A stretch of DNA of 35,028 nucleotides from Polyangium sp. 15x6 (GTDB lineage: Bacteria; Myxococcota_A; Polyangia; Polyangiales; Polyangiaceae), in the NCBI RefSeq assembly GCF_029960785.1, contig NZ_JASBQE010000117.1:1-35028 (forward strand), read 5' to 3'. Positions 3,106-27,964 of this stretch are shown piece after piece (positions within the stretch are counted from its first letter, which is position 1; each line of letters opens with the position of its first letter). The notes under the pieces were generated by a model. The model was given only the letters and a program-made list of their open reading frames with translations. It was not told where the DNA came from and did not search any database. The translations under genes were made by a program, and so were the position numbers.

Positions 3106-4251
3106 ATGAAAAAGAACGGTTCCATCGACATGGGCTCCGTCCGCGCGCGGTTCCGCGCCGTGCGTGATGGGCTCAATGCGGCTTTTCGGGAGCGCGAGGA
3201 CGCGATCGAGTGCATGTTGCTCGCCGCGCTCGCGCAGAGCCACGCGCTGCTCGTCGGGCCTCCGGGCACGGCGAAGAGCGCGCTCTTCTTCGGGTTCCTC
3301 GCGTCGTTCCCGGACGCGCGGAAGTTCCAGACGCTCGTCACGAAGTTCGGGACCGAGGACGAGTACTTCGGCCCCGTGAAGCTCTCGGCGCTCAAGAACG
3401 ACCTCTGGGAGAGGAATCTGGATGGCCGCCTCGCGGCTGTCGAGTGCGCCTTCCTCGACGAGGTCTTCAAGGGCTCGGACAGCGTGCTCAATGCATTCCT
3501 CTCCGCGATGAACGAGCGGCTCTACAAGGGACAGCCGATTCCCCTGCGGCTGCTCGTTGGAGCGTCGAACGAGCTGCCCGAGGAGGAGATCCTCGCGGCG
3601 ATCTATGACCGTTTCCTCCTGCGGGACGTCGTCGAGTACGTGCAGGCGGACGCGACGTGGATGCAGCTCGTGGCCACGCCGCCCGAGTACAAGCCGGCGG
3701 CGCAGATTGCCCTCGCGGAGTGGGACGCCGCGTGCAAAGACGTCATGCGCCTCGAGTTGCCCCAGCGTGTCGTCGAGGAGCTGCTTCGGCTCCGTACGGC
3801 GCTGAAGGCGGATGGCCTCGTCCTCTCCGATCGGCGCTGGATCGCGCTCACGCGTGTCCTCAAGGCGGCGGCGTGGCTCGACGATGCGCCCGCGGTCGAG
3901 CTCGATCACCTCTCCGTCCTGAAGTACGGACTCTGGAACAAGCCGGAGGAGCGGGCGCGCGTCGTCGCGGTCCTCCAGACGGTCGATCGCTCCGTCGTCG
4001 CGCAGGCGATCGATATCGTGGACGAGGCGCTCCGCGGATACGCGAATCGGCCGACGGAGCCGGCGGCGTATCAGTCCGCATTGCCCCAGCTCGCGGACAA
4101 GGTCACGGAGGCGGGCAAGCGTGTGCAGGATCTGCTGAAGAACGGCGTGTCGCGCCGCGCTCACGCGCGCATCCAGCCGAAGCTCGACGAGCTCAAGAAG
4201 GCCCACGACGCGCTCACGGCCGACCTCTCCAAGCGCTACGCGCTGCCGTAG
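3106..4251 (+). CDS. RavA-like MoxR-family AAA+ ATPase
   Basis: A 381-residue AAA+ ATPase. Walker A GPPGTAKS is at 51-58, Walker B FLDE at 116-119, and the sensor-1 region VGASNELPEEE is around 151-161 with Asn156. The TKFGTEDEYFGPVKLSALK block and VFKGSDSVLNAFLSAMNER are typical of the RavA branch of MoxR proteins. Such ATPases remodel target complexes with the help of a partner that has a von Willebrand factor A domain, and exactly that is encoded three bases downstream. The protein is shorter than E. coli RavA (about 500 residues); its C-terminal region (residues about 220-381) is helical and ends in a probable coiled coil. The target is unknown. No Shine-Dalgarno sequence stands out before the ATG, which is preceded by a hairpin. 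Confidence 0.88.
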   Translation: MKKNGSIDMGSVRARFRAVRDGLNAAFREREDAIECMLLAALAQSHALLVGPPGTAKSALFFGFLASFPDARKFQTLVTKFGTEDEYFGPVKLSALKNDLWERNLDGRLAAVECAFLDEVFKGSDSVLNAFLSAMNERLYKGQPIPLRLLVGASNELPEEEILAAIYDRFLLRDVVEYVQADATWMQLVATPPEYKPAAQIALAEWDAACKDVMRLELPQRVVEELLRLRTALKADGLVLSDRRWIALTRVLKAAAWLDDAPAVELDHLSVLKYGLWNKPEERARVVAVLQTVDRSVVAQAIDIVDEALRGYANRPTEPAAYQSALPQLADKVTEAGKRVQDLLKNGVSRRAHARIQPKLDELKKAHDALTADLSKRYALP

Positions 4252-4254
4252 GCC

Positions 4255-5424
4255 ATGGGCACGTTCTTGCAGGCGAGGCGCCGGCATCTCTGTGTCAAGG
4301 AGGCTTCCTTCGAGGACGCGGAGAAGGCCGGCGACCTGTGGAATGCAATCGTGGGGCTCGGGCGGGATCCGCCGACGCGCTCATTCGCGGAGGCCGTGAG
4401 GGATACGGTTCCCGCCGAGTACATGGCCTTTCTCGCCCTCGACGAGGTCGGCGCGGCCTACGCGTTCGGGCTCTTGTGGAAGGCGGGAAAGCACGTCCCC
4501 GAGGGGGCCTCGGCCTTCGAGATGCGCAGCGCTGCGCGCGAAGAGTGGGCGACGTTCGACAGGAAGGCGAAGCAGGTCAAGCACCTCTCCGATGGCTTCG
4601 GCTGGGATTGCTCGTCGGCCTGGGCGCAGGTTCGGCAAGTGGATGCTACGGGAGACGACATGGATCGGGTCGAGCGCATTGCTCGGCTGGCTGGTCGCAT
4701 GTTCGCCTCGCTTCGCGGCGCGCACGCGAGCAAGGTCCACGGGGTCTCGGGCGAGGTGTACTCGGTCGAGCAGGGCAATGACGTCGCCCGGCTTCTGCCG
4801 GCAGAGACGGTGCTCCTTACCGATCCGCAGATCGAGATCGTGGCCCTCGAACGAATTGCCTCTCGCCGGGCCGCGCAGTACGCGGTCCGGGGGACGACGA
4901 AGAAGTCGAAGGGACCGCTCGTGCTCGCGCTCGATGAATCGGGCAGCATGTCCGGAATCCGGAACGAGTGGGCGAAGGCCGCTGCGGTGGCGCTCGCCCG
5001 CGTTGCTGCCGCAGAGGATCGGCCCGTGGCGGTGGTGCATTACGCGACGTCCACCGTGGTGCAGATCGTGAAGCCCGGAGACAGCGCCGGGGTCGTGAAG
5101 ATGATCCTTCACTTCCTCAGCGGTGGAACGGCAATCGGCCTGGCCCTCAGCGTCGCAGTGGATCAGGTGAAGGTGCTCGCGCAGAAGGGCCAGCACGGCG
5201 CCGACATCATCCTCGTCACGGACGGCATCGACCGGAACGAGGAGGAGCAGAAGAAGTCGGTCGACGCGGCGTCGAGCATCGGCGTGCGGCTCTGGACGGT
5301 GGTGATCGAGTGCTCCATCGCGGAGGACTCGCCGCTGCGAAAGAGGGCCGCGCAATACACCGAGCTCAATGACAAGGCGATGACCGAGGGCTCGAGCATC
5401 ACGCTGCTCGCGGGGGCAACGTGA
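4255..5424 (+). CDS. ViaA-like VWA-domain protein, partner of the RavA-like ATPase
   Basis: A 389-residue protein with an N-terminal helical region of about 215 residues and a C-terminal VWA domain from about 220. A complete MIDAS metal site is visible: DESGS at 227-231, the GGT of LSGGTAIG, and the Asp of ILVTDGID. Together with the ATPase ending at 4251 it forms a MoxR/VWA pair in the RavA-ViaA arrangement, in which the VWA protein modulates the ATPase and binds targets. The gene begins three bases after the ATPase stop, and the next gene begins within its own stop codon (GTGA), so translation is coupled through the set. What the pair acts on in this organism cannot be read from the sequence. 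Confidence 0.85.
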   Translation: MGTFLQARRRHLCVKEASFEDAEKAGDLWNAIVGLGRDPPTRSFAEAVRDTVPAEYMAFLALDEVGAAYAFGLLWKAGKHVPEGASAFEMRSAAREEWATFDRKAKQVKHLSDGFGWDCSSAWAQVRQVDATGDDMDRVERIARLAGRMFASLRGAHASKVHGVSGEVYSVEQGNDVARLLPAETVLLTDPQIEIVALERIASRRAAQYAVRGTTKKSKGPLVLALDESGSMSGIRNEWAKAAAVALARVAAAEDRPVAVVHYATSTVVQIVKPGDSAGVVKMILHFLSGGTAIGLALSVAVDQVKVLAQKGQHGADIILVTDGIDRNEEEQKKSVDAASSIGVRLWTVVIECSIAEDSPLRKRAAQYTELNDKAMTEGSSITLLAGAT

Positions 5425-8171: not shown

Positions 8172-8258
8172 CAACCACGGCGCTGCCTCCGGGCATCGCA
8201 CGAATAAGCACCCGAGCCCAGATGTGCCGCGAATGGCGGCTCCTGGGAGCTTCGACAG

Positions 8259-8291
8259 GCGCACCTTCTCGGGGAGGTGCGCTCTTCTTTT
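8259..8291 (+). terminator. Rho-independent-type terminator or attenuator before recA
   Basis: GCGCACCT (8259-8266) pairs perfectly with AGGTGCGC (8275-8282) around an eight-base loop, followed by tcttctttt. It lies 15 bases before ATG 8306. Since it falls inside the longer open frame beginning at 8222, it supports 8306 as the recA start. Confidence 0.75.
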
Positions 8292-8305
8292 GTGGACCAA
8301 CGACC

Positions 8306-9301
<996 letters not shown>

Positions 9302-9360
9302 TTGAGGGGCCTGTGCGGGCGCCTGTGCGTCATCACGCGGGCAAGAAGAAGTAGAGATCA

Positions 9361-9409
9361 GCGCGCCGTCAGAGTCACCGAGGCAACTCGCAGGACTTCT
9401 GACGCGCGC
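9361..9409 (+). terminator. Long imperfect hairpin after recA
   Basis: GCGCGCCGTCAGA (9361-9373) pairs with TCTGACGCGCGC (9398-9409) with one bulged base; a few more bases can extend the stem inward. No T tract follows, so it may be a leader structure and not a terminator. Confidence 0.4.
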
Positions 9410-9413
9410 ACAG

Positions 9414-9426
9414 CCCTCTCGGAGGG
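9414..9426 (+). promoter_or_regulatory. Small hairpin covering the ribosome binding site of the 9430 gene
   Basis: CCCTC (9414-9418) pairs with GAGGG (9422-9426) around TCG. The GGAGGG sequence is the only ribosome binding site for ATG 9430, so the hairpin would hide it. Translation of the DUF6884-like/DndB-like pair may depend on opening this structure. Confidence 0.4.
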
Positions 9427-9429
9427 TTC

Positions 9430-9915
9430 ATGTTCACGGAGAAGCAGCCGGGGGCCAAGCGGGTCGCTCTCGTGGGCTGTTCGGCTCTGAAGAACAAGAA
9501 ACCGGCTCCTGCAAAGGACTTCTATACGTCGGCGCTCTTTCGCGCCGCCTACGCGTACGCCGAGAAGACATGCGACGTGATGGTCATCGTCTCCGCCTTC
9601 TACGGCGCGGTCGCCCCGAAGACCGTGCTGCACCCGTATGACCGGAGCCTCCGCAAGTTCCGGAAGAACGATCGGGAGGACTGGGGAGCGCGAACGATCG
9701 GCGAGATTTCGCCGATGTTCAACCCTCCTCCACAGCTCGTGATTCTAGCCGGAAAAGTTTATGCCGACGCGCTCGTACACGGGGCGCATTGGCACAACCT
9801 CCCTCGGCCGGAAGAACCGTTGCGGAAGATTCGTGGATGTGGCGCGCGGGTCGCGTGGATGAAGGCGAATACGCCAGTTGTGAAATCGAGCTCCTGTCAG
9901 TGGAGTAATCAATGA
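9430..9915 (+). CDS. DUF6884-like protein
   Basis: A 161-residue protein. The pattern VALVGCSALKNKKPAPAKDF, then YTSALFRAAYAYAE and VMVIVSAFYGAVAPKTVLHP, followed by a C-terminal VILAGKVYADAL, matches my memory of DUF6884. That family is frequent in phages and accessory regions and has the 'CS..K..pA.dlYtS..F....ya' signature. Its biochemical role is not firmly known. A similar signature occurs in domains attached to 7-deazaguanine (archaeosine/queuosine) enzymes, which is suggestive but not proof. The gene overlaps the DndB-like gene by four bases (ATGA), so the two are translated together. Its ribosome binding site lies in a small hairpin. Confidence 0.65.
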   Translation: MFTEKQPGAKRVALVGCSALKNKKPAPAKDFYTSALFRAAYAYAEKTCDVMVIVSAFYGAVAPKTVLHPYDRSLRKFRKNDREDWGARTIGEISPMFNPPPQLVILAGKVYADALVHGAHWHNLPRPEEPLRKIRGCGARVAWMKANTPVVKSSSCQWSNQ

Positions 9916-10955
9916 CGAAGAAGAAACTCGACCAGAAGAGCGGCACCCAGACCGGTCCGACGAAGGAGAGGAGCCACGAGACCGAGGCGAAGAACCCCGC
10001 GTCCGAGTGGGCCTTTCCGGCCATCCGCGGTGTCCAGGCCGGCGGCGAGTACTACTCGGTCATGGTGCACCTCCGGGACGTGGCGAAGCTCTTTGCCCCC
10101 GTGGATGGCAAGCTGCCGCCCGAGCTCCGGGCGCAGCGGGTGCTGAGCAAGGTCCGTGTTCCGAAAATCGCGGACTACATCACGAACAACCCGACGAGCT
10201 ACACGTTGCCGGCCCTCGTCGGTGCGATCGACGGTCTGCCCCGCTTCGAGCCGGCGCACGAGAAGAGCCACATGGGCACGCTCTACATCCCGCGGGACAT
10301 GACGGTCGCGGTCCTCGATGGGCAGCATCGGCGGGCGGCGGTCGCGATGGCGCTGTCGCAGGAGTATGTGAGGAAGCGGCGGGGATCGCTCGGCGATGAG
10401 AGCCTCTTCGTGACGCTGTTCGTCGACGCGGGGCTCGAGAAGGCGCAGCAGCGGTTCGCGGACTTGAACCGCTTCGCGGTGCGGCCGAACAACTCGCTCG
10501 GGCTCTTGTACGACCACCGCGACGAGCTGGCGAAGCTCACGCGCGCCGTCGTTCGCGACGTCTTCCTCTTCAACCAGCTCACCGACGGGGAGAAGACCTC
10601 GGTCTCGGGCGGCTCGAACAAGCTCTTCGCGCTGGCCAGCATCCATGCGGCGACGAAGGCGCTGCTCGCGGGGTTCAGCGGGAGTTTCGAAACCGCGAGG
10701 CAGATCGCCGTCGAGTTCTGGACCGAGCTCACACGCGTGATGCCGGATTGGCACGAGGTCGGCCTCGGTAAGATCAAGGCGCAGGTGCTGCGAGATCGGT
10801 GCGTGCACGCGCACACGGTCGTGCTCGAGGCCCTCGGCCGCGTCGGCAACGCCGTGCTCCGGGAGCGGCGCGAGGACTGGAAGAGCGTGCTGACGGGGCT
10901 CGGGACGCTGGACTGGTCCCGTGCGAGCCCGCGGTGGGAGGGGGCACGGTTGTAA
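9912..10955 (+). CDS. dndB: DndB-type DGQHR-domain protein
   Basis: A 347-residue protein of the DndB family. FPAIRGVQAGGEYYSVMV is at about 35-52, LPPELRAQRVLSKVRVPKIA at about 68-87, and the DGQHR signature at 136-140, followed by FADLNRFAVRPNNSLGLLYD. DndB is the transcriptional repressor and modulator of the dnd phosphorothioate DNA modification genes; the homologous DpdB acts in deazaguanine DNA modification. Here no dndA, dndC, dndD, dndE or restriction genes dndFGH are seen on either side, so it is an orphan within the window. It is translated with the DUF6884-like gene upstream (ATGA overlap). The name rests on sequence family only; it might be a DpdB-like or otherwise recruited member. 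Confidence 0.85.
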   Translation: MTKKKLDQKSGTQTGPTKERSHETEAKNPASEWAFPAIRGVQAGGEYYSVMVHLRDVAKLFAPVDGKLPPELRAQRVLSKVRVPKIADYITNNPTSYTLPALVGAIDGLPRFEPAHEKSHMGTLYIPRDMTVAVLDGQHRRAAVAMALSQEYVRKRRGSLGDESLFVTLFVDAGLEKAQQRFADLNRFAVRPNNSLGLLYDHRDELAKLTRAVVRDVFLFNQLTDGEKTSVSGGSNKLFALASIHAATKALLAGFSGSFETARQIAVEFWTELTRVMPDWHEVGLGKIKAQVLRDRCVHAHTVVLEALGRVGNAVLRERREDWKSVLTGLGTLDWSRASPRWEGARL

Positions 10956-10966
10956 ACGGCAGGGTC

Positions 10967-11110
10967 ATGAAGAACGCGGCGAGCGTGATCCTGACGGCGA
11001 ACCTGATCAAGCATCATCTCGGGCTCGAGCTCTCCATCGAAGAGCGGCGGTACGAGCCGGCGCTGGTCGGCGAGGACGCGCAGGTGGACGGGGCGGCGGC
11101 GACCGCCTGA
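10967..11110 (+). CDS. Small hypothetical protein, 47 residues
   Basis: The ATG at 10967 lies 11 bases after the dndB stop, behind a weak purine stretch (CAGGG). The protein (MKNAASVILTANLIKHHL...) has a helical N-terminal half and an acidic Ala-rich end, and is followed at once by a strong hairpin. It could be a small partner of the DndB-like protein. The short length means the call rests on position, start and the following terminator. Confidence 0.45.
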   Translation: MKNAASVILTANLIKHHLGLELSIEERRYEPALVGEDAQVDGAAATA

Positions 11111-11120
11111 CCGGGACGAC

Positions 11121-11150
11121 GGCGCAGCTCGGGGGGCTGCGCCGCTTTTC
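11121..11150 (+). terminator. Rho-independent-type terminator or attenuator
   Basis: GGCGCAGC (11121-11128) pairs perfectly with GCTGCGCC (11136-11143), loop TCGGGGG, followed by gcttttcatt. The next gene starts at 11166 with GGGG at 11157-11160 as its ribosome binding site. Confidence 0.75.
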
Positions 11151-11165
11151 ATTCTTGGGGTGTCA

Positions 11166-11942
11166 ATGAAAGCATCGCTCGCCGAGCTGAGGCGACAACC
11201 GCATACGAGCATCGCCCAGCTCCGGATGTTCCTGCACTGCCCGCGGCAGTACAGGTTGAAGTACATTGACCGTGTCCAGCCGTCATTCCGGCCGATTGCT
11301 ATGGTCTTCGGGGCCATCTGGCACGAGACGGTGGACAAGTACCTGCTGGGCGCTGGGCCCGAGGAGATGCGCGAACTCTTCCGCGGAGGGCTCGAAGCTG
11401 CGGTGAAGGCAAGTGCCCCGCCGGTATTGTTCAATGAGGATGAAGACCTCGGGCAGATGAACGACCTCGGCGTGCGCATGATCGGCGTGTTCGTGGAGCG
11501 CGTGCCGCGGCCGAAGAGGGTACTCGGGGTGGAAGTCGACTTCCTACTCGAGCTCGCGGATCCCAGCACGGGAGAGATGCTGCCGGTGCCCCTCGTCGGC
11601 GCGATTGACGCCGTGGTCTCCACCAGCGGCAGAAAGGCCGTCTGGGAGTTCAAGACGGCCGCGAGGAAGTGGAGTGCCCCGATGCTCCAGTACGACCTTC
11701 AGCCGACGGCCTACGCGATGGCGGCGCGGAAGGTGTTCGGGAAGGTCCAGGTTGTCCTCATCGTCGCTACGAAGACGAAGAAGCCCGACATCCAGATCGA
11801 GCAACTCTCGCGCGGGAAAGGGGATGAACGGGACCTTGCTGCGACGGCGGCGTCGGCGCTTCGAGGCATCAAGGCGGGCGTGGACCATCCAGTCCGGGGC
11901 TCGCAATGCGTGTCGTGCCCGTTTGCTTGGAAGTGCCGGTAG
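11166..11942 (+). CDS. PD-(D/E)XK nuclease, Cas4/RecB-like, with cysteine cluster
   Basis: A 258-residue protein of the RecB/Cas4-type PD-(D/E)XK superfamily. His53 (in GAIWHE) is the N-terminal catalytic histidine, Asp148 (GAID) and EFK at 161-163 form the metal site, and QYDLQPTAYAMA (175-186) is the motif-IV helix. Cys25 (HCPRQYRLKYI) plus Cys248, Cys251 and Cys257 (CVSCPFAWKC) have the spacing seen in iron-sulfur Cas4 and AddB-type nucleases, so a 4Fe-4S cluster is likely. The expected activity is single-strand exonuclease/endonuclease at DNA ends. No cas genes or CRISPR array are present, so this is a Cas4-like nuclease outside CRISPR, probably working with the RecA and ComM-like proteins of the same block. 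ATG 11166 is preferred over GTG 11160 because GGGG is correctly spaced for it. Confidence 0.85.
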   Translation: MKASLAELRRQPHTSIAQLRMFLHCPRQYRLKYIDRVQPSFRPIAMVFGAIWHETVDKYLLGAGPEEMRELFRGGLEAAVKASAPPVLFNEDEDLGQMNDLGVRMIGVFVERVPRPKRVLGVEVDFLLELADPSTGEMLPVPLVGAIDAVVSTSGRKAVWEFKTAARKWSAPMLQYDLQPTAYAMAARKVFGKVQVVLIVATKTKKPDIQIEQLSRGKGDERDLAATAASALRGIKAGVDHPVRGSQCVSCPFAWKCR

Positions 11943-12108: not shown

Positions 12109-13263
12109 TCAGCCATACGGAGAGATCCCCCTACTACGCTTCACCGCCGAGGATGTGAAGAACCCACCGCACTCCTCCTTCCGTCGACACGTCTGGCATA
12201 CCTCGACGTACACATTCTTCCAATCCGAAATGCTCTTCCGTGCAAACCGATGCAACGTCGGATCGAGGACGCAGAGCTGATGGTTATAGATCGAAGTCGC
12301 CATCCCCGCACGGTCCAAGGTCAAGACAGCTTCTCGTAGTGGCCTCTGGTAGTCGACCGGATCGATCCACAACGCCTCGAGATTGGTCCTCGCGAACCCC
12401 ACGTGCTCGAGGCCCATGAGCGCGACGTGATCCAAAAAGGTTAAGTTCTTCGCGACGAAGCGCGCGAACTCCGGCATCCTCTCGACCGTCTCCCGATGGA
12501 TCACGAACCGAAGCTCGACGCGGACCCGCCGCCGCTTCAGGTTCAGGATTCCTCGCACCGTCTCGTCGAAGGCACCTTTGGCCTGGACGACATAGTCGTG
12601 CTCCTCGGCCAAATCCGAGTAAAGCGGGATACCGATCATCAGATCCGGATGCCTCACGTCGCCGACGGCGCGCGCGAAACCGGCGTCGGAGAACCGTCGA
12701 CCATTCGAGAGGACATGTACGCCCGTGCGGGGGAGGTGCTCTCGGAGCAGCACGAGGAGCCGCACGAGACGCTCGCCCAGGAGAGCAGGCTCGCCCCCCG
12801 TGATACCGATCTCCGTGGCATCCGGCGAAATCAAGGGGATGGCCCGCTCGATATCGTCCACGAGCCAGCCGTCGTCGTGGTCCTTCGGCGGCTGAGAACA
12901 CATCACGCAGAAGTTGTCGCAGCGCTCGGTCACGAGGAACGTGTTCGACCGTGAATTCGCGCGGTAGAGCGCCGAGACCGTGCCCCGCACGGGGTCGATC
13001 CGTACGACGTCCCCGTCGCGCAGGTAAGTGTGATCCGCGCCGAGGAGATACGTGTCCTTTGGGGCCAAGGGGCGTGCCGCCTGGCGGAGGAGGTATCCTC
13101 GGAACCCTGGTGGAAAATCGGACGCCTCCCCGGACAGCAGCAGCAGCAGCTTCGATCGAGCCGCCTCCGGAAGCGCCGGAGTCTCCGTGATTCGCGCGAC
13201 GAACGGCGCGCGCGAGGTTTCGGAGAGCGCCCGCAGACCACGCGCCGAGAGCTTCACCAGCAT
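12109..13263 (-). CDS. hxsC: His-Xaa-Ser system radical SAM maturase HxsC
   Basis: A 384-residue radical SAM enzyme. The cluster motif is C115-x3-C119-x2-C122 in VTERCDNFCVMCSQPPKD, followed by WLVDDIERAIPLI and the GITGGEPALLG motif. Near the end are four cysteines, in DPTLHRF-linked NHQLCVLD and CQTCRRKEECGGFF, and the protein ends SRGISPYG. This is the signature of HxsC, one of two radical SAM proteins in the His-Xaa-Ser system, which is thought to modify the repeat protein HxsA. The chemistry is unknown. The gene is last in the operon, starting four bases after hxsB ends. The length is normal and the frame intact. Confidence 0.92.
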   Translation of the reverse strand: MLVKLSARGLRALSETSRAPFVARITETPALPEAARSKLLLLLSGEASDFPPGFRGYLLRQAARPLAPKDTYLLGADHTYLRDGDVVRIDPVRGTVSALYRANSRSNTFLVTERCDNFCVMCSQPPKDHDDGWLVDDIERAIPLISPDATEIGITGGEPALLGERLVRLLVLLREHLPRTGVHVLSNGRRFSDAGFARAVGDVRHPDLMIGIPLYSDLAEEHDYVVQAKGAFDETVRGILNLKRRRVRVELRFVIHRETVERMPEFARFVAKNLTFLDHVALMGLEHVGFARTNLEALWIDPVDYQRPLREAVLTLDRAGMATSIYNHQLCVLDPTLHRFARKSISDWKNVYVEVCQTCRRKEECGGFFTSSAVKRSRGISPYG

Positions 13264-13267
13264 GGAC

Positions 13268-14719
13268 TCATACCCACCGGAGAAGGATGTCCCGCGCCTC
13301 GGCGTCGGTCTCGAGGAGCCCGATCACGTGCCGCAGGACGCCCATCTGCTTCGTGCAAAATGCGCTGAACGCCTTGTGCCCGACGGCGTCGCCCTGCGTG
13401 GCCCTGTGAAACACGGGATCGGCGCCGCAATAAGGCAGGAAGGGACAGTCGGCGCACATGGGCATGCCCTCGAGGATGGTCTCGCCGAGCGGTGCGAGGA
13501 GCGCTTCGGACGTCAAGAGCTCCTCGTAGCTGTGCTCGTCCAGGTGCCCCAATCGGAAGGTCTGGTCCCCCATCTCGGCCAGCATGCGGCCCTCATCCGA
13601 TGCATACACCGCACCGTCGTAATTGTAGACGAGCGCCCCGATCCCGACTCCTGCGGGGGATTGGAGATCGACGTATCCCGAGCCGAGGGGCGAGAACATC
13701 TTCTGGAGCAGGATGGTCGTGAACTCCTCGCGCAGGAAGTAGCCTCCGGCATTGATCCGGAGGATGTGCGAGAGCCCGCGCTTGTAAAAGTCGAGCCAGT
13801 CTTCGACGCCGTACCGTTTGACCAGGCTCCGCGCCGCGAATCCGTACGGGCTGAGGCTCCGCAGGAAGATGCCGTGGAACCCGAGGCGCACGTACTCGTC
13901 GATGATCTCGTCGACGCGCGACAAGCTCCTCGGCGTGGTCGTCATGAGCGCCGATATCCGGTCCAGACCGAGCACCTCGCGGACCCTGTGAATCCCCTCG
14001 ACCGTTTTCCGGTGACTGCCACCGCCGCGCGTCGGCCGCTGGCCGTCGTGGAGATCGGCGGGACCGTCCAGCGAGGTCGACAGGTACACGCCGTGCTCCT
14101 TGCAGAACGACAAGACGTCGTCGGACAGACGCGAAAGATTGGAGGTAATGACAAACTGTAGATCGCGCCGGTGGTCCTCGTTGAGCTTCCGCGCGCGCTC
14201 CACGATGTGGCAGACGAGCGGGAAGTTGAGGAGCGGCTCGCCTCCCTGAAGCTCGATCTTGATGTGCTCGTTCGGGCTTCTGAACACGAGATCGAGCGCC
14301 TTGTCGGCGTGCTCGACCGTCATGTCGAACGCGGTACTGTCCTCCGATTGCCTAGAGACCTGGCAATACTGACAGGAGTGATCACACCGCAACGTAACGA
14401 CGAAGATGTGTAGCCCCGTGAACGCGGCAACGCGCTCTGCTCGGCTCCTGTATTTCAACGCCAGCAAATCGAAGGCGACAGACGAGTCGTTTTCGTACAG
14501 GAAATGGCGCGACTTCAGCGCCTTGTAGACGCTCGTGTCCGAATCGAGCCTCCGCTCGAGGAACGCGACGAGCTCGTCACGCGCGAGGCGGACGTACTCG
14601 CCGACGTCGTTCGTCACGATGTACGCATGCTCGTCGAGGCGACCGAAGCGCAGGGGCAGCAGGCGATATCCCGCCGACGGCGCGTAGGCACTCCTCGGAT
14701 GGAAGACCGCCCGCGCCAT
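13268..14719 (-). CDS. hxsB: His-Xaa-Ser system radical SAM maturase HxsB
   Basis: A 483-residue radical SAM/SPASM enzyme. An N-terminal domain of about 100 residues (YRLLPLRFGRLDEHAYIVTN) precedes the C112-x3-C116-x2-C119 motif in VVTLRCDHSCQYCQVSRQ. KIELQGGEPLLNF is the SAM-binding GGEP motif. The C-terminal SPASM-type cluster includes GMPMCADCPFLPYCGADP and a late Cys in FCTKQMGV. This matches HxsB. Such enzymes use a 4Fe-4S cluster and SAM to generate a radical and usually modify peptide side chains. The start codon is one base after the hxsD stop, so the genes are tightly coupled. Confidence 0.93.
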   Translation of the reverse strand: MARAVFHPRSAYAPSAGYRLLPLRFGRLDEHAYIVTNDVGEYVRLARDELVAFLERRLDSDTSVYKALKSRHFLYENDSSVAFDLLALKYRSRAERVAAFTGLHIFVVTLRCDHSCQYCQVSRQSEDSTAFDMTVEHADKALDLVFRSPNEHIKIELQGGEPLLNFPLVCHIVERARKLNEDHRRDLQFVITSNLSRLSDDVLSFCKEHGVYLSTSLDGPADLHDGQRPTRGGGSHRKTVEGIHRVREVLGLDRISALMTTTPRSLSRVDEIIDEYVRLGFHGIFLRSLSPYGFAARSLVKRYGVEDWLDFYKRGLSHILRINAGGYFLREEFTTILLQKMFSPLGSGYVDLQSPAGVGIGALVYNYDGAVYASDEGRMLAEMGDQTFRLGHLDEHSYEELLTSEALLAPLGETILEGMPMCADCPFLPYCGADPVFHRATQGDAVGHKAFSAFCTKQMGVLRHVIGLLETDAEARDILLRWV

Positions 14720-22667: not shown

Positions 22668-23228
22668 TCATCCTCCGCGCCGCCTCTTCTTCGGTGCCTC
22701 CACCTGACGAGCCACCTCGGGGACGTGACTCCAGGTCTTGCCCTCGTCGATGTTGCGGATCGACTTCGCGTCCACGCCGAAGCTGGAGCCGATCATCCTC
22801 GGAGGTACGCCTTGATCCGGGAAGACGCGGATCGGCTTGACCTGCTCCTCGGTGAGCCGAGCGCGCGGGTTGTTGATCCCCGGCCGCCCTCGCGATGAAG
22901 AAGCCGCGGGAAGCGCCTTGCGCTCGATCTCCTCGAGCAGCACCGCGCCCGCGTTGCACGGGTTGGGCTTCGAGCCCTCGTAGAGGTGGCTGGGATTGAC
23001 GCACGTCTTCTTGTCGCAGGTGTGCAGCGTCATCCCAGACGGAGGAAGTCCGTGCCCCAGCTCGAACATGCGGCGGTGGGCCATGACGACGCGGCGTCCG
23101 ACGCAGAACACGCCGTACCCGCGGTTGTTCACCGCGCCAAGCCAGTACCAGCACTCGTCGCCGCTGCCCTGACGAACAAGGGTGCTGAACTTCGCGAAGG
23201 ACGAGAGGTTCTGCTTTCCTCGGGCGCA
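22668..23228 (-). pseudogene. HNH endonuclease gene lacking a usable start
   Basis: The frame encodes a phage-type HNH protein: DECWYWLGAVNNRGYG, VVMAHRRMFELGHGLPPSG, LHTCDKKTCVNPSHLYEG (the Cys pair and the His/Asn of the HNH site). A C-terminal helix-turn-helix-like part follows (ARLTEEQVKPIRVFPDQGVP) and a basic tail (PKKRRRGG). The first start codon in frame is GTG 23132, which would cut off the conserved DECWYW segment. The frame is open back to 23228 with no ATG, GTG or TTG before a TAG. The 5' end has therefore probably been lost or frameshifted. If translated from 23132, the product is 154 residues and may lack part of the fold. Confidence 0.6.
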
Positions 23229-23851: not shown

Positions 23852-24922
23852 TTATCGCCGCCGTCGTTTACCTTTCTCAAACCGGCCGTCCGAGCCTCGG
23901 TACCGGCGAACGCTCTCGTCCCACTCGGTGTCGTTGGACGCCAACTTGGTGAGCAGCGCAGCCACAAGCCCGGCCGCCATCCCTCCGGCGAGCAGTGTCG
24001 CCCCCAGCCCAGGGCCGGAGGTTGCGGCTGCAGGAGCAGGCACAGAGACGGACGGCACGTTGGCGGAAGGTGCTCGAGCGGCAACAGCCGCGGGCGCCGC
24101 GGGCTGGACAGCGCGCGGAGGTGCGGCAGCCCGCTGGGAGACCGCCTCGGGCGCGGGCGAGGCGCTTGCTTGAACAGGGCCGATTTTGACGATCTCCGCG
24201 AGCCGCGAAGCGATCTGGTGGAGGTCTGGACGCTTCGTCCTGTCGGCGGCGATCATCTGGAGCACCAACTCGCGCAGCGCTGCCGGGATGGTCGCGTTGT
24301 TCAGACGGGCCGGATCCCCGGTTCCCGTAAGCAACTCCGTCGCCACAACCCCGAGCGAGTAGATGTCCGCCCCCGCGTGGAACCCAACGCTCCCATTGTC
24401 CACCTCCGGCGCGATGTACCCCCGCGTGCCTGCCTTGTGGTTGGTCATGGTGGTCGTGCCCTGCGGGACACGCGCCAGGCCGAAGTCCGCGACCTTCACG
24501 ATGAAGCCCATGTCGGGGTCCGACGTGACGAGCAAGTTTTCCGGCTTCAGGTCCCGGTGAAACCCGCCCAGCCGGTGAATGCCCCAGAGCCCCTGCAGCG
24601 CGTAAGACAGCGCGAAGGCTACCACCAACCACGGCTTCGGCTGCTCCACCCAGCTACGCAGAGAGCCGTGCTCGCAGTACTCGAGCACGATGTAAGGGGG
24701 GTGGGCGTCGAAGTCGGCGTCGAGCACATCGACGACGTATTTGTTATCGATCTGGTCGTAGAGGATGGCGTACTCGTTCCGGAACCTATCCAGCGCGTCA
24801 CCGCGGAGTTCGATGAGCTCCTTCACAGCCACCTGCTCGCCCGTCTCTTGGTCGAGCGCGAGACTCACGCGACCGAATCCGCCACTGGCCAGAGGGCGAA
24901 GAATGCGATAACGACTGTTCAC
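23852..24922 (-). CDS. Hanks-type Ser/Thr protein kinase with C-terminal membrane segment
   Basis: 356 residues from GTG 24922, chosen because AAGGAG lies nine bases upstream and the kinase fold starts at once (SRYRILRPLASGGFGRV); an earlier start at 25000 adds unrelated sequence. All key kinase residues are present: Gly loop 11-18, Lys34 in AVKE, HRDLKPEN (122-129), DFG (146-148), APE (171-173). A Pro/Ala-rich linker (about 250-300) leads to one hydrophobic span (GLGATLLAGGMAAGLVAALL, about 304-323) and a basic tail RFEKGKRRRR. The kinase is therefore tethered with no large outside sensor domain. It lies 88 bases after the DUF4417-like gene on the same strand and may be the last gene of that set. 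Confidence 0.88.
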   Translation of the reverse strand: MNSRYRILRPLASGGFGRVSLALDQETGEQVAVKELIELRGDALDRFRNEYAILYDQIDNKYVVDVLDADFDAHPPYIVLEYCEHGSLRSWVEQPKPWLVVAFALSYALQGLWGIHRLGGFHRDLKPENLLVTSDPDMGFIVKVADFGLARVPQGTTTMTNHKAGTRGYIAPEVDNGSVGFHAGADIYSLGVVATELLTGTGDPARLNNATIPAALRELVLQMIAADRTKRPDLHQIASRLAEIVKIGPVQASASPAPEAVSQRAAAPPRAVQPAAPAAVAARAPSANVPSVSVPAPAAATSGPGLGATLLAGGMAAGLVAALLTKLASNDTEWDESVRRYRGSDGRFEKGKRRRR

Positions 24923-25010
24923 TCGGGGATCTCCTTCCGCTTTCGTTGCATGGCCGGCTCGGGCCGCACCACCACTTTGATCACGTCGGCTGCTTCTCAC
25001 GGGCGCCGGC

Positions 25011-26093
25011 TTAACTGCTTGCTCGTCGGGAGACCCAGTCGGAGTATCGGCCGACGTTGTGAATCAGCAGGTCGTCGACCGGCTCGCCCAACGCAGGTTG
25101 CCACCTGATGCGACGACTGACACTGGCAGCAACCCGCCTCTTCACGGCCTTCATGAACGGCTCGGAGTCAAGCAGGGTCCAGGAGTCGAATAGCTTGGGC
25201 AGGCGGTGCCGATAACGGGCAGCTCCGATTGCCATGAGGTGCAATCTGCGGCCAACCGCATCCTGGAGCTGCGCCAGGCGGGTGAGGGCGAGCTCGCCGC
25301 GTGCGGGAGTCGTAAGCCCTGTTTGGAACTCCTTGGCGACGACGTGGATATTCGGGTGGCTGCGCAGGAAGTCCTGCCAGTAGAGCCAGTCGGCGTCGGT
25401 GAGGGCCTGCAGGTATGGAATTGTGGGCATTCCCTCACGGCTCCACTCGGCCGCGCAGATGAGAGAGCGCTTTCGGTTGAACAGGTGCTGGGGCCTCGGG
25501 TCCTCAAGGAAGAAGGAGTAGTTCGGGGCAATACTACCGGCGAGTTCGAGCTGGGCAAGTGCCTGCGGAGCCCCGTGCCGACGTCGCCAGCGCCAATACG
25601 CTTCAATGGGCTTGTCCTTGCCCGTGCCGAGGAGAATGAGCGACGTGCTTGGAGCAACCCCGAAGTAGGCGCGCAGCGCAGCAGGAGCCTGGGCCACGGG
25701 CCCATACACTCCGCGGCGCATACGCAGGACCTCACGCAGCGGGAGGGCGGCCCAGGCAAGCGGAGCCCGTTCCTCTCGCTTGTACCCGTGTTGAATGACG
25801 GGAATGTACCGTGGGAACGCTTTCCAACCCTCGGGTTGCAGAAGGGGAGGAATGTTACGGAAGCCGAACCCACCCACCTCGAGCAGGTCTCTGGCAAAGG
25901 CGGTGGGTTTCTGCAGGCAAACGAGATCGCAGTCCTTCTGGTCGCAGGTCGAGCACCGATCCATGCAAGACCAGCCACCGCCCCGACGGGTATAGCCGCC
26001 GCAGTCGCTGAGCAGCGGGCAGGTGTAGCAGCCTGCGCTCAACGTGTGGCCGTCGAGGCGGTGCAGATCCATCTTCAGGGCGAGGCGTCTCAT
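25011..26093 (-). CDS. Cysteine-rich DUF4417-like protein
   Basis: A 360-residue protein. The first 60 residues contain eight cysteines (22, 25, 31, 43, 47, 50, 55, 59; CYTCPLLSDCGGY and CMDRCSTCDQKDCDLVC), enough for one or two iron-sulfur clusters or zinc sites. The remainder resembles DUF4417-type proteins: GVAPSTSLILLGTGKDKPIE, APNYSFFLEDPRP, NRKRSLICAAEWSREGMPTI, WLYWQDFLRSHPNIHVVAKE and FQTG. I assign that family by memory of its motifs, not by search; its biochemistry is unknown. The ATG overlaps the stop of the preceding small gene (ATGA), so it is translated with that gene and the STAS-like gene. Confidence 0.65.
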   Translation of the reverse strand: MRRLALKMDLHRLDGHTLSAGCYTCPLLSDCGGYTRRGGGWSCMDRCSTCDQKDCDLVCLQKPTAFARDLLEVGGFGFRNIPPLLQPEGWKAFPRYIPVIQHGYKREERAPLAWAALPLREVLRMRRGVYGPVAQAPAALRAYFGVAPSTSLILLGTGKDKPIEAYWRWRRRHGAPQALAQLELAGSIAPNYSFFLEDPRPQHLFNRKRSLICAAEWSREGMPTIPYLQALTDADWLYWQDFLRSHPNIHVVAKEFQTGLTTPARGELALTRLAQLQDAVGRRLHLMAIGAARYRHRLPKLFDSWTLLDSEPFMKAVKRRVAASVSRRIRWQPALGEPVDDLLIHNVGRYSDWVSRRASS

Positions 26094-26470
26094 CGCGTGG
26101 CCTCCGCGCGGCCCACCCTGAGCTCCGCGAGGCGATGCTCGGCGACGATCTGAACCACTTGACCGAGCAAGGGCGTGCCCGAGCCTCCGTATTCGCGGCG
26201 CAGGTAGTCTGCCTGGTCGCCTGCGACCTCAAGCGCCACCACACCGCCGCAGAAGAAGCGCACCGGCCCCTTGCCGTCGGCTGCGGGGCACGGCGCCCAG
26301 AGCTCCCCCTTGGGCGATACGACTGACTCGTTCACCACCGAGCCGCAGACGCTCGTCGTCGTCTCCGGCGGACAGTCCGTGAAAAGATCTCGGCCGAGAT
26401 GTTCGCGAAAGCAGTCGTCGCGCTGGCGCCGAAAGCGATCGTTCCGCCGACGCAGAAAGTCCTCACCCAT
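26090..26470 (-). CDS. Small cysteine-containing hypothetical protein
   Basis: 126 residues from ATG 26470 (a longer frame to 26515 overlaps the STAS-like gene and is less likely). The basic N-terminus (GEDFLRRRNDRFRRQRDD) is followed by Cys20, 33, 42, 61 and 74 spread over a beta-type region (GSVVNESVVSPKGELWAPCP, VRFFCGGVVALEVAG). The start overlaps the end of the STAS-like gene by eight bases and the stop overlaps the DUF4417-like start (ATGA). The tight overlaps on both sides suggest a working partner of those proteins. No family is recognised. Confidence 0.6.
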   Translation of the reverse strand: MGEDFLRRRNDRFRRQRDDCFREHLGRDLFTDCPPETTTSVCGSVVNESVVSPKGELWAPCPAADGKGPVRFFCGGVVALEVAGDQADYLRREYGGSGTPLLGQVVQIVAEHRLAELRVGRAEATR

Positions 26471-27044
26471 GGTACTGCTCCTTCCAAGAGGGCGCGTAGA
26501 TGAGTCGCCGACCATCCTTTCGTCGGCGAAGAATGCGAATCTGATAGAGGGCCGCGAGGCGATTGCTCCACGCCGTCACGCCGATGGTCCGATCGGACTC
26601 GAAGAGATCCGCTGCGGTTGCTTCCCCCTTCTCCAGCACGAACTGCAGCGTCGTCTTGAGAGGTGGATCGAGTGTGCCCAGCAACTCGGGCGCGTGCCCT
26701 CGGGGCAAAGCAGAGCGTTCGCGCCAGACAGCGGCGTTCTGGTCCTTGAGGACGAGCAGGATGTCATCGACCCCGTCGGCTGGGATGTTGGCAAGCACGG
26801 GGTACACTTCCGGCTCGTTCAGGCTCCACAGCGGCCAGAGGGCAGCAGAGAAGTAAGAAGCCGAGATGACCTCGACCCCTGCGAGGTCCAGCACGAAGGG
26901 CGAACCGCCGGGTACCTGGCGCGCCGCTGCCACCAGAAGCGGGCAATCACCTTGACCTGCAAGCCGTCCGGCAAGGATGGTACGGCCGACCACCTGGACC
27001 ACGGAGAGCAGGGGCATCGGCGAGCTGTCACCGTCCACGATCAT
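26463..27044 (-). CDS. STAS-like (DUF4325-type) protein with winged-helix C-terminus
   Basis: 193 residues from ATG 27044; GTG 27050 and TTG 27053 are alternatives. Residues about 50-75 (FVLDLAGVEVISASYFSAAL) match the core of STAS-like DUF4325 domains, 'DF.gv..is.sF...l', which are related to anti-sigma factor antagonists. Residues about 128-185 look like a winged helix-turn-helix (TTLQFVLEKGEATAADLFES, then AWSNRLAALYQIRILRRRKD). DUF4325 proteins often sit beside GHKL ATP-binding proteins, as here (27143-27964), in a layout recalling anti-sigma/antagonist partner-switch pairs. A direct DNA-binding output via the winged helix is inferred. Confidence 0.7.
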   Translation of the reverse strand: MIVDGDSSPMPLLSVVQVVGRTILAGRLAGQGDCPLLVAAARQVPGGSPFVLDLAGVEVISASYFSAALWPLWSLNEPEVYPVLANIPADGVDDILLVLKDQNAAVWRERSALPRGHAPELLGTLDPPLKTTLQFVLEKGEATAADLFESDRTIGVTAWSNRLAALYQIRILRRRKDGRRLIYAPSWKEQYHG

Positions 27045-27142
27045 CGTCACCAAAAATGATGACGATCGCGGAGTGTGTCAAGCCCGGTGCCGCTCTGCGC
27101 GGCCGAATGTCTATAAGTGCTTGATATTTATCACTTGTGTCG
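27045..27142 (-). promoter_or_regulatory. Short AT-rich intergenic region with palindrome, possible operator
   Basis: This gap between the ATP-binding gene and the STAS-like gene includes an AT-rich patch, unusual in this GC-rich sequence. It contains the perfect short palindrome GATATTTATC (within about 27119-27133) flanked by AAGTG/CACTT. On the - strand a TTGACA (27081-27076) is present, but no good -10 follows at the right distance. It may be an operator or internal promoter. Confidence 0.35.
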
Positions 27143-27964
27143 TCAGACGAAGACGCCAGACACGCACACGTGGAAACCGGGGCGACGTGGCGCCACCATC
27201 AGTCGGAGCGAGGTGGCGCCTGGGCTTTGGCCCTCCCAGTTACCAACGGCGCCCGTCGACCGGAGGCGGATGGTGCACATCCTATTAACCAGCGCCCGGA
27301 AAACGCTCGTGAAGCCGTAGCCTCGGCCCTTCTGTCCCGTCACGGAGACGCCATCCCGCAGCGCGAGGCGCACCGCCGAGACGTCGTCTGGGAGCCCCGA
27401 GTATGCCGGGTTGCGCCGGAGGCTATCGATGATGCCGCCGCCCACGTCGGTCACGCTGAACGACCAGCCCGTCGATGCAATCTCGTAGGACGCGACAGGT
27501 GGCAGGTCGGAGATGGCGTGTTCCGCAGCGTTACTCGCCATCTCGTGCAGGGCGCAGGCCAGCGCAGCAGCAAACCTCGAGGCCAGACCACCGCGGACGA
27601 GCGCCGTCTTGAACCTCTCCTGAAACAACAAGAAGGGCTGGCCGGGTCTCCAGTCGCTGGGCGACGGGGGAATCTCGTGAACCTCTCCGCCGCTTCCGTT
27701 GCCTGCGGGGACCTGTTCTTGGACGAGGCCCGTCGCGCGATCTAGCTCCTTGGGCAGGAGAGCAAGGTGGCCGGATGCTCCCAGGTCGCTCGGCAGGACG
27801 TGTAGAAGATCGTCGCCATGAGCTCGCCACCAGGACCAGCGAATCGCCGAGAGTTCCACGGTGGCGCAGAGGGACGCACGCGTTGCCTCCGCATGAAGCG
27901 CTTGATGCACGCCCGCGGGACCGCGGTACGCAAGGAGGTTCTCCAAGACATCGAGCGGGTGCAT
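27143..27964 (-). CDS. GHKL (HATPase_c-like) ATP-binding protein
   Basis: 273 residues from ATG 27964; the frame is open to 28039 but the GGGGGGA site upstream fits 27964. The C-terminal half is a GHKL ATPase domain: N-box HEMASNAAEH (140-149), G1 box VTDVGGGI (171-178), G2 box GQKGRGYGF (about 210-218), as in histidine kinases, anti-sigma kinases and MORC-type ATPases. No histidine phospho-acceptor domain and no receiver are present. The N-terminal about 110 residues are unique (WSWWRAHGDDLLHVLPSD) and have no recognised domain. It is the first gene of the - strand set with the STAS-like protein next, consistent with an RsbW-type kinase/antagonist relationship, which is inferred. Confidence 0.75.
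   Translation of the reverse strand: MHPLDVLENLLAYRGPAGVHQALHAEATRASLCATVELSAIRWSWWRAHGDDLLHVLPSDLGASGHLALLPKELDRATGLVQEQVPAGNGSGGEVHEIPPSPSDWRPGQPFLLFQERFKTALVRGGLASRFAAALACALHEMASNAAEHAISDLPPVASYEIASTGWSFSVTDVGGGIIDSLRRNPAYSGLPDDVSAVRLALRDGVSVTGQKGRGYGFTSVFRALVNRMCTIRLRSTGAVGNWEGQSPGATSLRLMVAPRRPGFHVCVSGVFV

What the first reader, a model, noticed from the sequence alone, without database searches (positions are those of the whole stretch)
23852..27964. Compact GHKL ATPase / STAS-like / Cys-rich / DUF4417-like / Ser-Thr kinase gene set: candidate undescribed system
Five - strand genes combine an ATP-binding GHKL protein, a STAS-like protein with a winged helix, a small Cys-containing protein, a DUF4417-like protein with eight N-terminal cysteines and a membrane-tethered kinase. 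The middle three overlap by 8 and 4 bases, so they are made together. GHKL plus STAS suggests partner switching. Coupling this to a possible metal/redox-cluster protein and a kinase is not a system I know. It sits among mobile and decayed genes, as defence or stress islands do.
Basis: partly seen in the sequence, partly recalled or inferred. Interest (0 to 1): 0.75.

Follow-up and report, generated by a model that had tools for sequence, protein, structure and literature searches.

The report
Mobile four-gene kinase-repressor-effector cassette
A small set of four genes, found in unrelated bacteria and often beside known anti-virus genes, seems to join a recently described stress switch to an uncharacterised enzyme shaped like those that swap bases in RNA or DNA.

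Summary
Four of the five genes (GHKL = A, STAS-wHTH = B, small = C, DUF4417-like = D; window 25011-27964) form a real unit: it recurs in 13 of 13 examined loci with a full-length D of this type (Myxococcota, Planctomycetota, rhizobial plasmids, one unplaced MAG), in four arrangements. The Ser/Thr kinase is not part of it. A and B are relatives of CapK/CapS, a DNA-damage-activated kinase/repressor pair published in June 2026: B matches CapS over its full length, keeps its phosphorylated serine in 13/13 and has a palindrome at its start in 11/13. C is predicted HIRAN-like; D is predicted to share the fold of tRNA-guanine transglycosylase/DpdA, with four added invariant Cys. The cassette moves as a unit, and on four of five rhizobial plasmids it lies beside known defence genes. 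Best reading: a self-regulated, stress-induced cassette, a third kind beside CapKS and VapKSC, whose effector acts on nucleic-acid bases. Activity and anti-phage role are inferred, not shown.

The parts
27143..27964 (-). Gene A: CapK-like GHKL kinase, 273 aa; N-box E141/N145/H149, G1 D173-x-G175-x-G177, G2 G215-x-G217
26463..27044 (-). Gene B: CapS-like STAS-wHTH repressor; invariant S63 (numbered from ATG at 27044); wHTH motif W159-x-N161-R162-L163, G178
27043..27066 (.). Palindrome ATCGTCA-N10-TGACGAT over the start of gene B, putative operator of B
26090..26470 (-). Gene C: small protein, N-terminal helix (MGxxF) plus predicted HIRAN-like domain
25011..26093 (-). Gene D: DUF4417-like protein; N-terminal Cys cluster, predicted TGT/DpdA-like TIM barrel (residues about 87-360)
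23852..24922 (-). Gene E: Ser/Thr kinase with a C-terminal hydrophobic stretch; NOT part of the conserved cassette

Best explanation
A self-contained, horizontally moving stress-response cassette. Step 1 (inferred from CapK): a signal, most likely DNA damage or single-stranded DNA, activates kinase A. Step 2 (homology and conserved residues shown, reaction inferred): A phosphorylates Ser63 of B. Step 3 (palindromes shown, binding inferred): unphosphorylated B dimers sit on the palindrome over the start of gene B and repress B-C-D; phosphorylation releases them. Step 4 (folds predicted, activity inferred): C binds DNA, perhaps ends or ss/ds junctions, through its HIRAN-like domain and places D there; D, a transglycosylase-fold enzyme, exchanges or removes bases and so spoils invading or damaged DNA, or tRNA. 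B may also hold D in check directly, as VapS does VapC. That A-D are one unit is close to certain; an anti-phage or cell-arrest role is likely; the exact chemistry is open.
For: Unit: A, B and D together in 13/13 loci, C by profile in 12/13 and by position in the 13th; B-C and C-D overlap or lie within 5 bases in all 13; full-length B in 3 of 282 Myxococcota genomes, all three D carriers; the same 8 plasmid records by B and by D. Switch. Operator: 11/13 against 0.9 of 13 in shuffles and 19 of 190 other starts; no copy of the half-sites at neighbouring defence genes in the 12 loci scanned, so regulation looks internal. Effector folds. Mobility. Defence setting: Gabija, AbiE, type IIG RM, Shosta, Kiwa, Hma and Mokosh genes against few matches in control windows.
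Against: No experiment. D has no detectable sequence similarity to TGT (prob 0.2), and the residue that I place, by strand count only, at TGT's nucleophile is D in 10, E in 2, S in 1 of 13. A's N-terminus shows no STAS or HTH match (the control CapK-STAS against CapS-STAS failed too). C's Z of 7.5-9.5 is near the level that the tool calls common for models without a clear match, and no member of 13 matches Pfam HIRAN. L017 and L030 lack a scored palindrome. Seven neighbours scanned in non-plasmid loci gave only weak PADLOC matches, and L011's scanned neighbour only 2e-8. My palindrome scan also missed capS of the reference L035.
Confidence: 0.55

Rival explanations
1. A damage-inducible DNA repair or tolerance operon of the cell: C finds broken ends, D removes or swaps damaged bases; defence islands are only where it travels.
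For: CapK-type signal is DNA damage (paper); HIRAN-like plus base-acting fold suits repair.
Against: Patchy: full-length D in 5 of 377 phylum genomes (a fragment in a sixth); cassette swapped between sites; neighbours are immune genes on plasmids.
Confidence: 0.2
2. A toxin-antitoxin-like system as in VapKSC: B binds and silences D (or C-D) until A phosphorylates B; transcriptional control is secondary.
For: Fixed effector behind the STAS gene, as in VapKSC; strict packing of B-C-D.
Against: B keeps a full wHTH and palindromes at its start, which VapS as described has not.
Confidence: 0.13
3. A regulator of the neighbouring defence operons, as CapKS is, with C and D as accessory parts.
For: B is CapS-like; different immune systems lie next to it.
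Against: C and D are present in 13/13 while neighbours change; half-sites of the operator found at no neighbour in 12 loci scanned.
Confidence: 0.08
4. A DpdA-like DNA marking system that inserts preQ0 or another 7-deazaguanine.
For: D's fold; DpdA 7ui4 at Foldseek rank 18.
Against: No QueC match in 2 of 6 D-bearing genomes, own genome included; only partial matches of 22-26 bits in 3; full-length in 1. No DpdB- or DpdC-like gene in the cassette.
Confidence: 0.04

Closest known systems
CapK + CapS (Chambers et al., EMBO J 2026, PMC13373217)
   Same: GHKL kinase with N-box Asn; STAS-wHTH protein homologous over its length, with the phospho-Ser; palindrome at its own start; beside immune genes.
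   Different: A is 87-95 residues shorter than the three CapK compared, with no detectable HTH or STAS part; A can lie behind D or on the other strand; C and D follow B in 13/13, not CBASS, Bub or Thoeris.
VapKSC (same paper)
   Same: GHKL kinase, STAS protein and a fixed effector in one operon.
   Different: No PIN nuclease in the cassette; B keeps a wHTH; the effector pair is HIRAN-like plus TGT-like.
tRNA-guanine transglycosylase / DpdA
   Same: Predicted TIM-barrel fold, Z up to 16.8 over about 250 residues.
   Different: No sequence similarity found; Cys cluster lies N-terminal to the barrel (TGT's zinc site lies C-terminal, recalled); the putative catalytic Asp is not strictly kept; most D-bearing genomes tested lack a full-length QueC.
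HIRAN domain (HLTF, Rad5, lp_0118)
   Same: Predicted order of strands and helix, and fold.
   Different: No Pfam HIRAN match; stand-alone with an N-terminal helix starting MGxxF.
DUF4417 (PF14386)
   Same: Plasmid homologues are annotated so; 3 of 11 members match weakly.
   Different: The window protein itself does not match; best E 0.0024; phage DUF4417 is reported fused to ParB-CTPase folds (PMC12704722, passages), ours is not.

Membership tests
CapKS | GHKL kinase with conserved active-site Asn (CapK N218) | tested here: met
   N145 aligned to N218, 13/13
CapKS | CapK N-terminal HTH and STAS domains | tested here: inconclusive
   no match, but the CapK-STAS against CapS-STAS control also fails; A 273 aa, CapK 360-368 aa
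CapKS | CapS STAS-wHTH architecture over the full length | tested here: met
CapKS | Phosphorylated Ser of the STAS domain (S54/S58) | tested here: met
   S63 in 13/13, aligned with the S58A site of 9z72
CapKS | Palindromic operator at the capS promoter | tested here: met
   palindrome in 11/13; binding not tested. The same scan found such repeats before capS in 2 of 3 reference loci
CapKS | capK directly followed by capS (443 of 443 in the paper), then a known or predicted immune operon (348 of 443) | tested here: not met
   A directly before B on one strand in 6/13 (window included), divergent in 1, behind D in 6; C-D follow B in 13/13
CapKS | Activation by ssDNA / DNA damage | not testable with these tools
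   needs biochemistry
VapKSC | PIN-domain VapC effector in the operon | tested here: not met
   no PIN match in the window proteins; none of the four conserved genes is one. A PIN gene is annotated 2 kb outside the cassette in L009 only
TGT/DpdA | TGT-type TIM barrel | tested here: met
   on a predicted model
TGT/DpdA | Sequence profile PF01702 | tested here: not met
   no match; hhalign prob 0.2
TGT/DpdA | Catalytic Asp residues | tested here: inconclusive
   placed by strand count only; D160 13/13, D309 10/13
HIRAN | HIRAN fold | tested here: inconclusive
   best known-HIRAN rows Z 7.2-9.5 on a predicted model, next unrelated rows 4.2; moderate Z
HIRAN | Pfam HIRAN profile | tested here: not met
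   0 of 13
DUF4417 | Match to PF14386 | tested here: not met
   none for the window protein, 3 of 11 members weakly (best E 0.0024)
MADS (through kinase E) | MAD6 equivalog cut-off | tested here: not met
   112 bits against a cut-off of 460

The most novel reading that the evidence does not exclude
A third class of GHKL-STAS immune module with a new effector principle: a HIRAN-like protein brings a transglycosylase-fold enzyme to DNA ends, where it excises or exchanges bases of invading DNA on demand, without a 7-deazaguanine pathway in most hosts. I know of no described immune effector of this kind.
Probability: 0.33. Interest if true: 0.87.

Novelty: new variant of a known kind. Interest (0 to 1): 0.72.

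Why it matters
It extends the CapKS/VapKSC logic, described only in 2026, to a fixed effector pair of unknown chemistry, and gives DUF4417, a family with almost no literature, a predicted fold and a setting. The cassette is small (about 3 kb), has clear borders and recurs on plasmids of soil bacteria, so each step (kinase, repressor, operator, effector) can be tested directly.

Tried and rejected
Rejected: kinase E as a member; C as a conserved Cys protein; MADS membership. Doubted: DpdA-type preQ0 insertion; control of neighbouring defence genes by B.

Led nowhere: phage records (no match); IMG/VR (no relative; one peptide pattern); PDB sequence searches with C and D; TGT profile alignment; STAS test of A's N-terminus; sigma-70 scan (0 found, 0.5 expected in shuffles). 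In the VIA list for D all 50 rows shown were TGT entries; DpdA was not among them. The genome-contig scan used one peptide pattern and kept 5 loci of 318 pattern matches, so the census is a lower bound. Of 42 plasmid records with a D-like match, 34 have no gene B at E 1e-3; I opened 2 of these 34 (L013, L014): no A or B, and only a sub-threshold C match (E 0.016) in L013. L032 holds only a D fragment. The weak partial D hits L026-L028 were not examined. Two more Aminobacter plasmids (H5, H6) with the same match values as L010 were not opened. L002-L006 and L019-L025 repeat places already counted or belong to the fragment. In one search L017 was not scanned, and L029 gave no hit with the half-site chosen. 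L012's MkoA has a weak kinase-like domain of its own (Pkinase E 4e-4).
Full report
WHAT IS THERE. The five - strand genes exist as described. I call them A (GHKL, 27143-27964), B (STAS-winged helix, 26463-27044), C (small, 26090-26470), D (DUF4417-like, 25011-26093) and E (kinase, 23852-24922). B overlaps C by 8 bases and C overlaps D by 4. Pfam matches of single A and B proteins are below cut-off, C and D have none, E is a clear protein kinase. The window lies in a 13.4-Mb genome. A D fragment in a same-genus genome sits on a contig of 5,599 bases, the length of a contig titled Polyangium sp., so I infer a Polyangium-like myxobacterium.

IT IS A UNIT OF FOUR. tblastn with D finds 42 of 72,556 plasmid records and no phage record. 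The best ones show a STAS-like gene, a small gene and D in a row, with a GHKL gene before or after. With profiles built from the window proteins, 13 of 13 loci with a full-length D of this type have A, B and D side by side; C is detected in 12, and in L029 an ORF at the right place was added by position. The 13 are the window, Planctomyces (L007), five rhizobial plasmids (L008-L012) and six genome contigs (L015-L018, L029, L030; L016 is a MAG without a named phylum). Three further loci with a distant or broken D (L013, L014, L032) lack the others. Order varies: A first on the same strand (window, L007, L015, L016, L018, L029), A first but divergent (L017), A last on the same strand (L010, L011, L012, L030), A last and convergent (L008, L009). 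Independent checks agree: window B finds 8 plasmid records and a rhizobial D finds the same 8; B matches 23 of 282 Myxococcota genomes, but over its full length only 3, and these three carry D. Full-length D is rare: 5 of 377 phylum genomes plus one fragment. Pairwise identities of the four families rise and fall together (r 0.82-0.89, 0 of 2000 permutations as high), as expected for genes inherited together.

E IS NOT PART OF IT. By phmmer at E 0.01 no relative of E adjoins the cassette in the other loci; the nearest are 4 to 5 kb away in L015 and L017. The genome has at least 151 matches to E. PADLOC's mad6 label is a kinase-domain match; the NCBIfam MAD6 cut-off is far from met.

A AND B ARE CapK/CapS RELATIVES. 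A paper of June 2026 (PMC13373217; I read the abstract, sections 7, 10, 12, 13, 14, 17 and 33, and passages) describes CapK, a GHKL kinase activated by ssDNA, and CapS, a STAS-wHTH repressor that lets go of DNA when its STAS serine is phosphorylated; the pair controls CBASS, Bub and other operons. A cousin, VapKSC, has a PIN toxin. B's profile matches PDB 9z72/9z73 at E 1.1e-6 over its length; the paper names these entries as V. cholerae CapS S58A, and the mutated position lines up with S63, kept in 13 of 13 B proteins. I fetched three CapKS loci, one with the paper's own CapS accession WP_001567865.1. Profile comparison gives prob 97.3, E 1.7e-11 for B against CapS over 171 columns, and prob 96.2, E 2.4e-9 for A against CapK over the GHKL part, with A's N145 on CapK's N218, whose mutation the paper reports to block signalling. 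A is shorter; its first 118 residues match neither HTH nor STAS of CapK, but the test is insensitive because CapK-STAS against CapS-STAS fails too. What A senses is open.

AN OPERATOR. Within -42 to +14 of gene B, 11 of 13 loci have an inverted repeat scoring 7 or more; 200 sets of dinucleotide shuffles average 0.9 of 13 (at most 5), and 19 of 190 other called gene starts in the same loci reach 7. In the window it is ATCGTCA-N10-TGACGAT over the start codon. The window, L015 and L016 share the half-site; other loci have their own. L017 and L030 score 5 and 6. I scanned 12 loci (not L017), each with its own half-site: apart from overlapping or second copies in front of B (L009, L010, L012, L016, L018) there was one other match, with a mismatch, 450 bases before A in L016; L029 gave none with the half-site chosen. 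No copy lay at a neighbouring defence gene. So B most likely regulates its own B-C-D operon. As a positive control the same scan found repeats before capS in two of three reference loci and missed L035.

C AND D BY FOLD. D's model (7 sequences, pLDDT 85, the first 60 residues weaker) matches tRNA-guanine transglycosylases: Foldseek E 6e-4, the only three matches below 0.001 all TGT, DpdA 7ui4 at rank 18, other TIM barrels with lower TM; VIA Z 16.8, rmsd 3.2 over 247 residues, all 50 rows shown TGT and within 0.7 of each other; phage proteins named queuine tRNA-ribosyltransferase among the BFVD hits. Sequence comparison with TGT gives nothing, so I claim a TGT-like fold, not membership. D keeps C22, C25, C31, C43, E72, D160, E164, N191, S193, R209, D235 and E255 in 13/13; C55 and C59 in 12; the position I place at TGT's nucleophile is D in 10, E in 2, S in 1. 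Such conservation suggests an enzyme, perhaps not with TGT's exact chemistry. For C, I noted a HIRAN-like pattern by eye before folding; the model (5 sequences, pLDDT 79) then matched lp_0118 at Z 9.5, HLTF HIRAN at 7.5, Rad5 at 7.2 and HamB of Hachiman at 6.0, with ribosomal proteins following at 4.2. That lp_0118 is a HIRAN protein and that the HLTF domain binds DNA 3' ends is recalled; entry titles say only that it binds DNA. No Pfam HIRAN match in 13. QueC has no match in the own genome and in G239, partial matches of 22-26 bits (just over the Pfam cut-off) in three genomes, and a full-length match in one of six, which speaks against preQ0 as D's substrate. The own genome has a normal TGT elsewhere.

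MOBILE AND, ON PLASMIDS, IN DEFENCE ISLANDS. Two rhizobial plasmids share 72% nucleotide identity over 3.07 kb that begins at the palindrome and ends 165 bases past the start of A; on one the neighbours are AbiE and Gabija, on the other Shosta and Kiwa (a second shared piece of 267 bases lies elsewhere). An Aminobacter plasmid and a myxobacterial contig share about 67% inside the cassette only. PADLOC matches at E 1e-20 or better were found for 11 of 13 flanking plasmid proteins that I scanned, chosen by name out of 41 flanking genes: type IIG RM, AbiEi, AbiEii, GajA, GajB, ShosT, ShosA, KwaA, KwaB, HmaC, MkoA. In five control windows on the opposite side of the same plasmids, 46 of 56 annotated genes (cut, very short or broken ones dropped) gave such matches in at most 4 (mad3 twice, HEC-06, Orf5). 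As 28 flanking genes were not scanned, 11 of 41 is a lower bound. In non-plasmid loci 7 neighbours scanned with PADLOC gave no match or weak ones (1e-6 to 1e-8); an integrase adjoins A in L017 and a transposase in L015. The defence setting thus rests on the rhizobial plasmids.

HOW IT PROBABLY WORKS. Signal (inferred: ssDNA or damage) to A; A phosphorylates B on S63 (residues shown, reaction inferred); B leaves the palindrome (site shown, binding inferred); more B, C and D are made; C takes D to DNA (inferred); D alters or removes bases (inferred). Rivals are a repair operon, a VapS-like contact antitoxin, a regulator of neighbours and a preQ0 insertase.

NOVELTY. Full-text searches of 5.39 million open papers found DUF4417 in three; the passages of PMC12704722 speak of ParB fusions and not of transglycosylases, and the other two I saw as listings. 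The main text of the CapKS paper does not contain DUF4417; its Dataset EV2 of 443 loci I did not see, so a few of our type could be in it. Listings for HIRAN/GHKL/STAS/antiphage and for HIRAN/transglycosylase/phage/defense, GHKL/STAS/antiphage and CapK/CapS/VapKSC (10 of 76 listed) showed no such system beyond that paper. A TGT gene in a BREX-related system is described with other partners (PMC12839542, passages). DefensePredictor's main text has no GHKL, STAS or DUF4417, though a figure legend lists an HATPase among predicted systems (PMC13092281, one passage). Subscription papers, supplements and preprints were not searched. I rate it a new variant of a known kind.

Noticed in passing
L008 7048-7884 and L009 7048-7884 (- strand): The public annotation places a 299-aa hypothetical protein on the + strand here; the conserved GHKL gene lies on the opposite strand.
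   Followed up: yes
window 8222-11942: RecA, a DUF6884 gene, a DndB-family gene and a PD-(D/E)XK nuclease in a row on the + strand; DUF6884 and DndB overlap.
   Followed up: no
window 3106-5424: bpMoxR ATPase and a vWA gene, parts of MoxR-vWA-beta-propeller ternary systems by Pfam's wording.
   Followed up: no
window 12109-14719: Two adjacent radical SAM genes on the - strand.
   Followed up: no
L014 3208-5672: Streptomyces plasmid: a ParB-domain gene just before a distant DUF4417 gene, then amidoligases; recalls DpdB-DpdA.
   Followed up: no
L018 5661-6278: A second STAS-like ORF about 3 kb from the cassette, weakly similar to gene B (E 5e-4), with a TIR-like gene at 3185-4627 (E 0.003, below cut-off).
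   Followed up: partly
L032 2828-3934: Fragment of D in a same-genus genome, perhaps a remnant of a lost cassette.
   Followed up: partly
window 22668-23132: HNH_3-like gene downstream of the kinase (E 0.001, below cut-off).
   Followed up: no
L016 near 12891: Very strong inverted repeat (score 14) at a called gene start outside the cassette.
   Followed up: no
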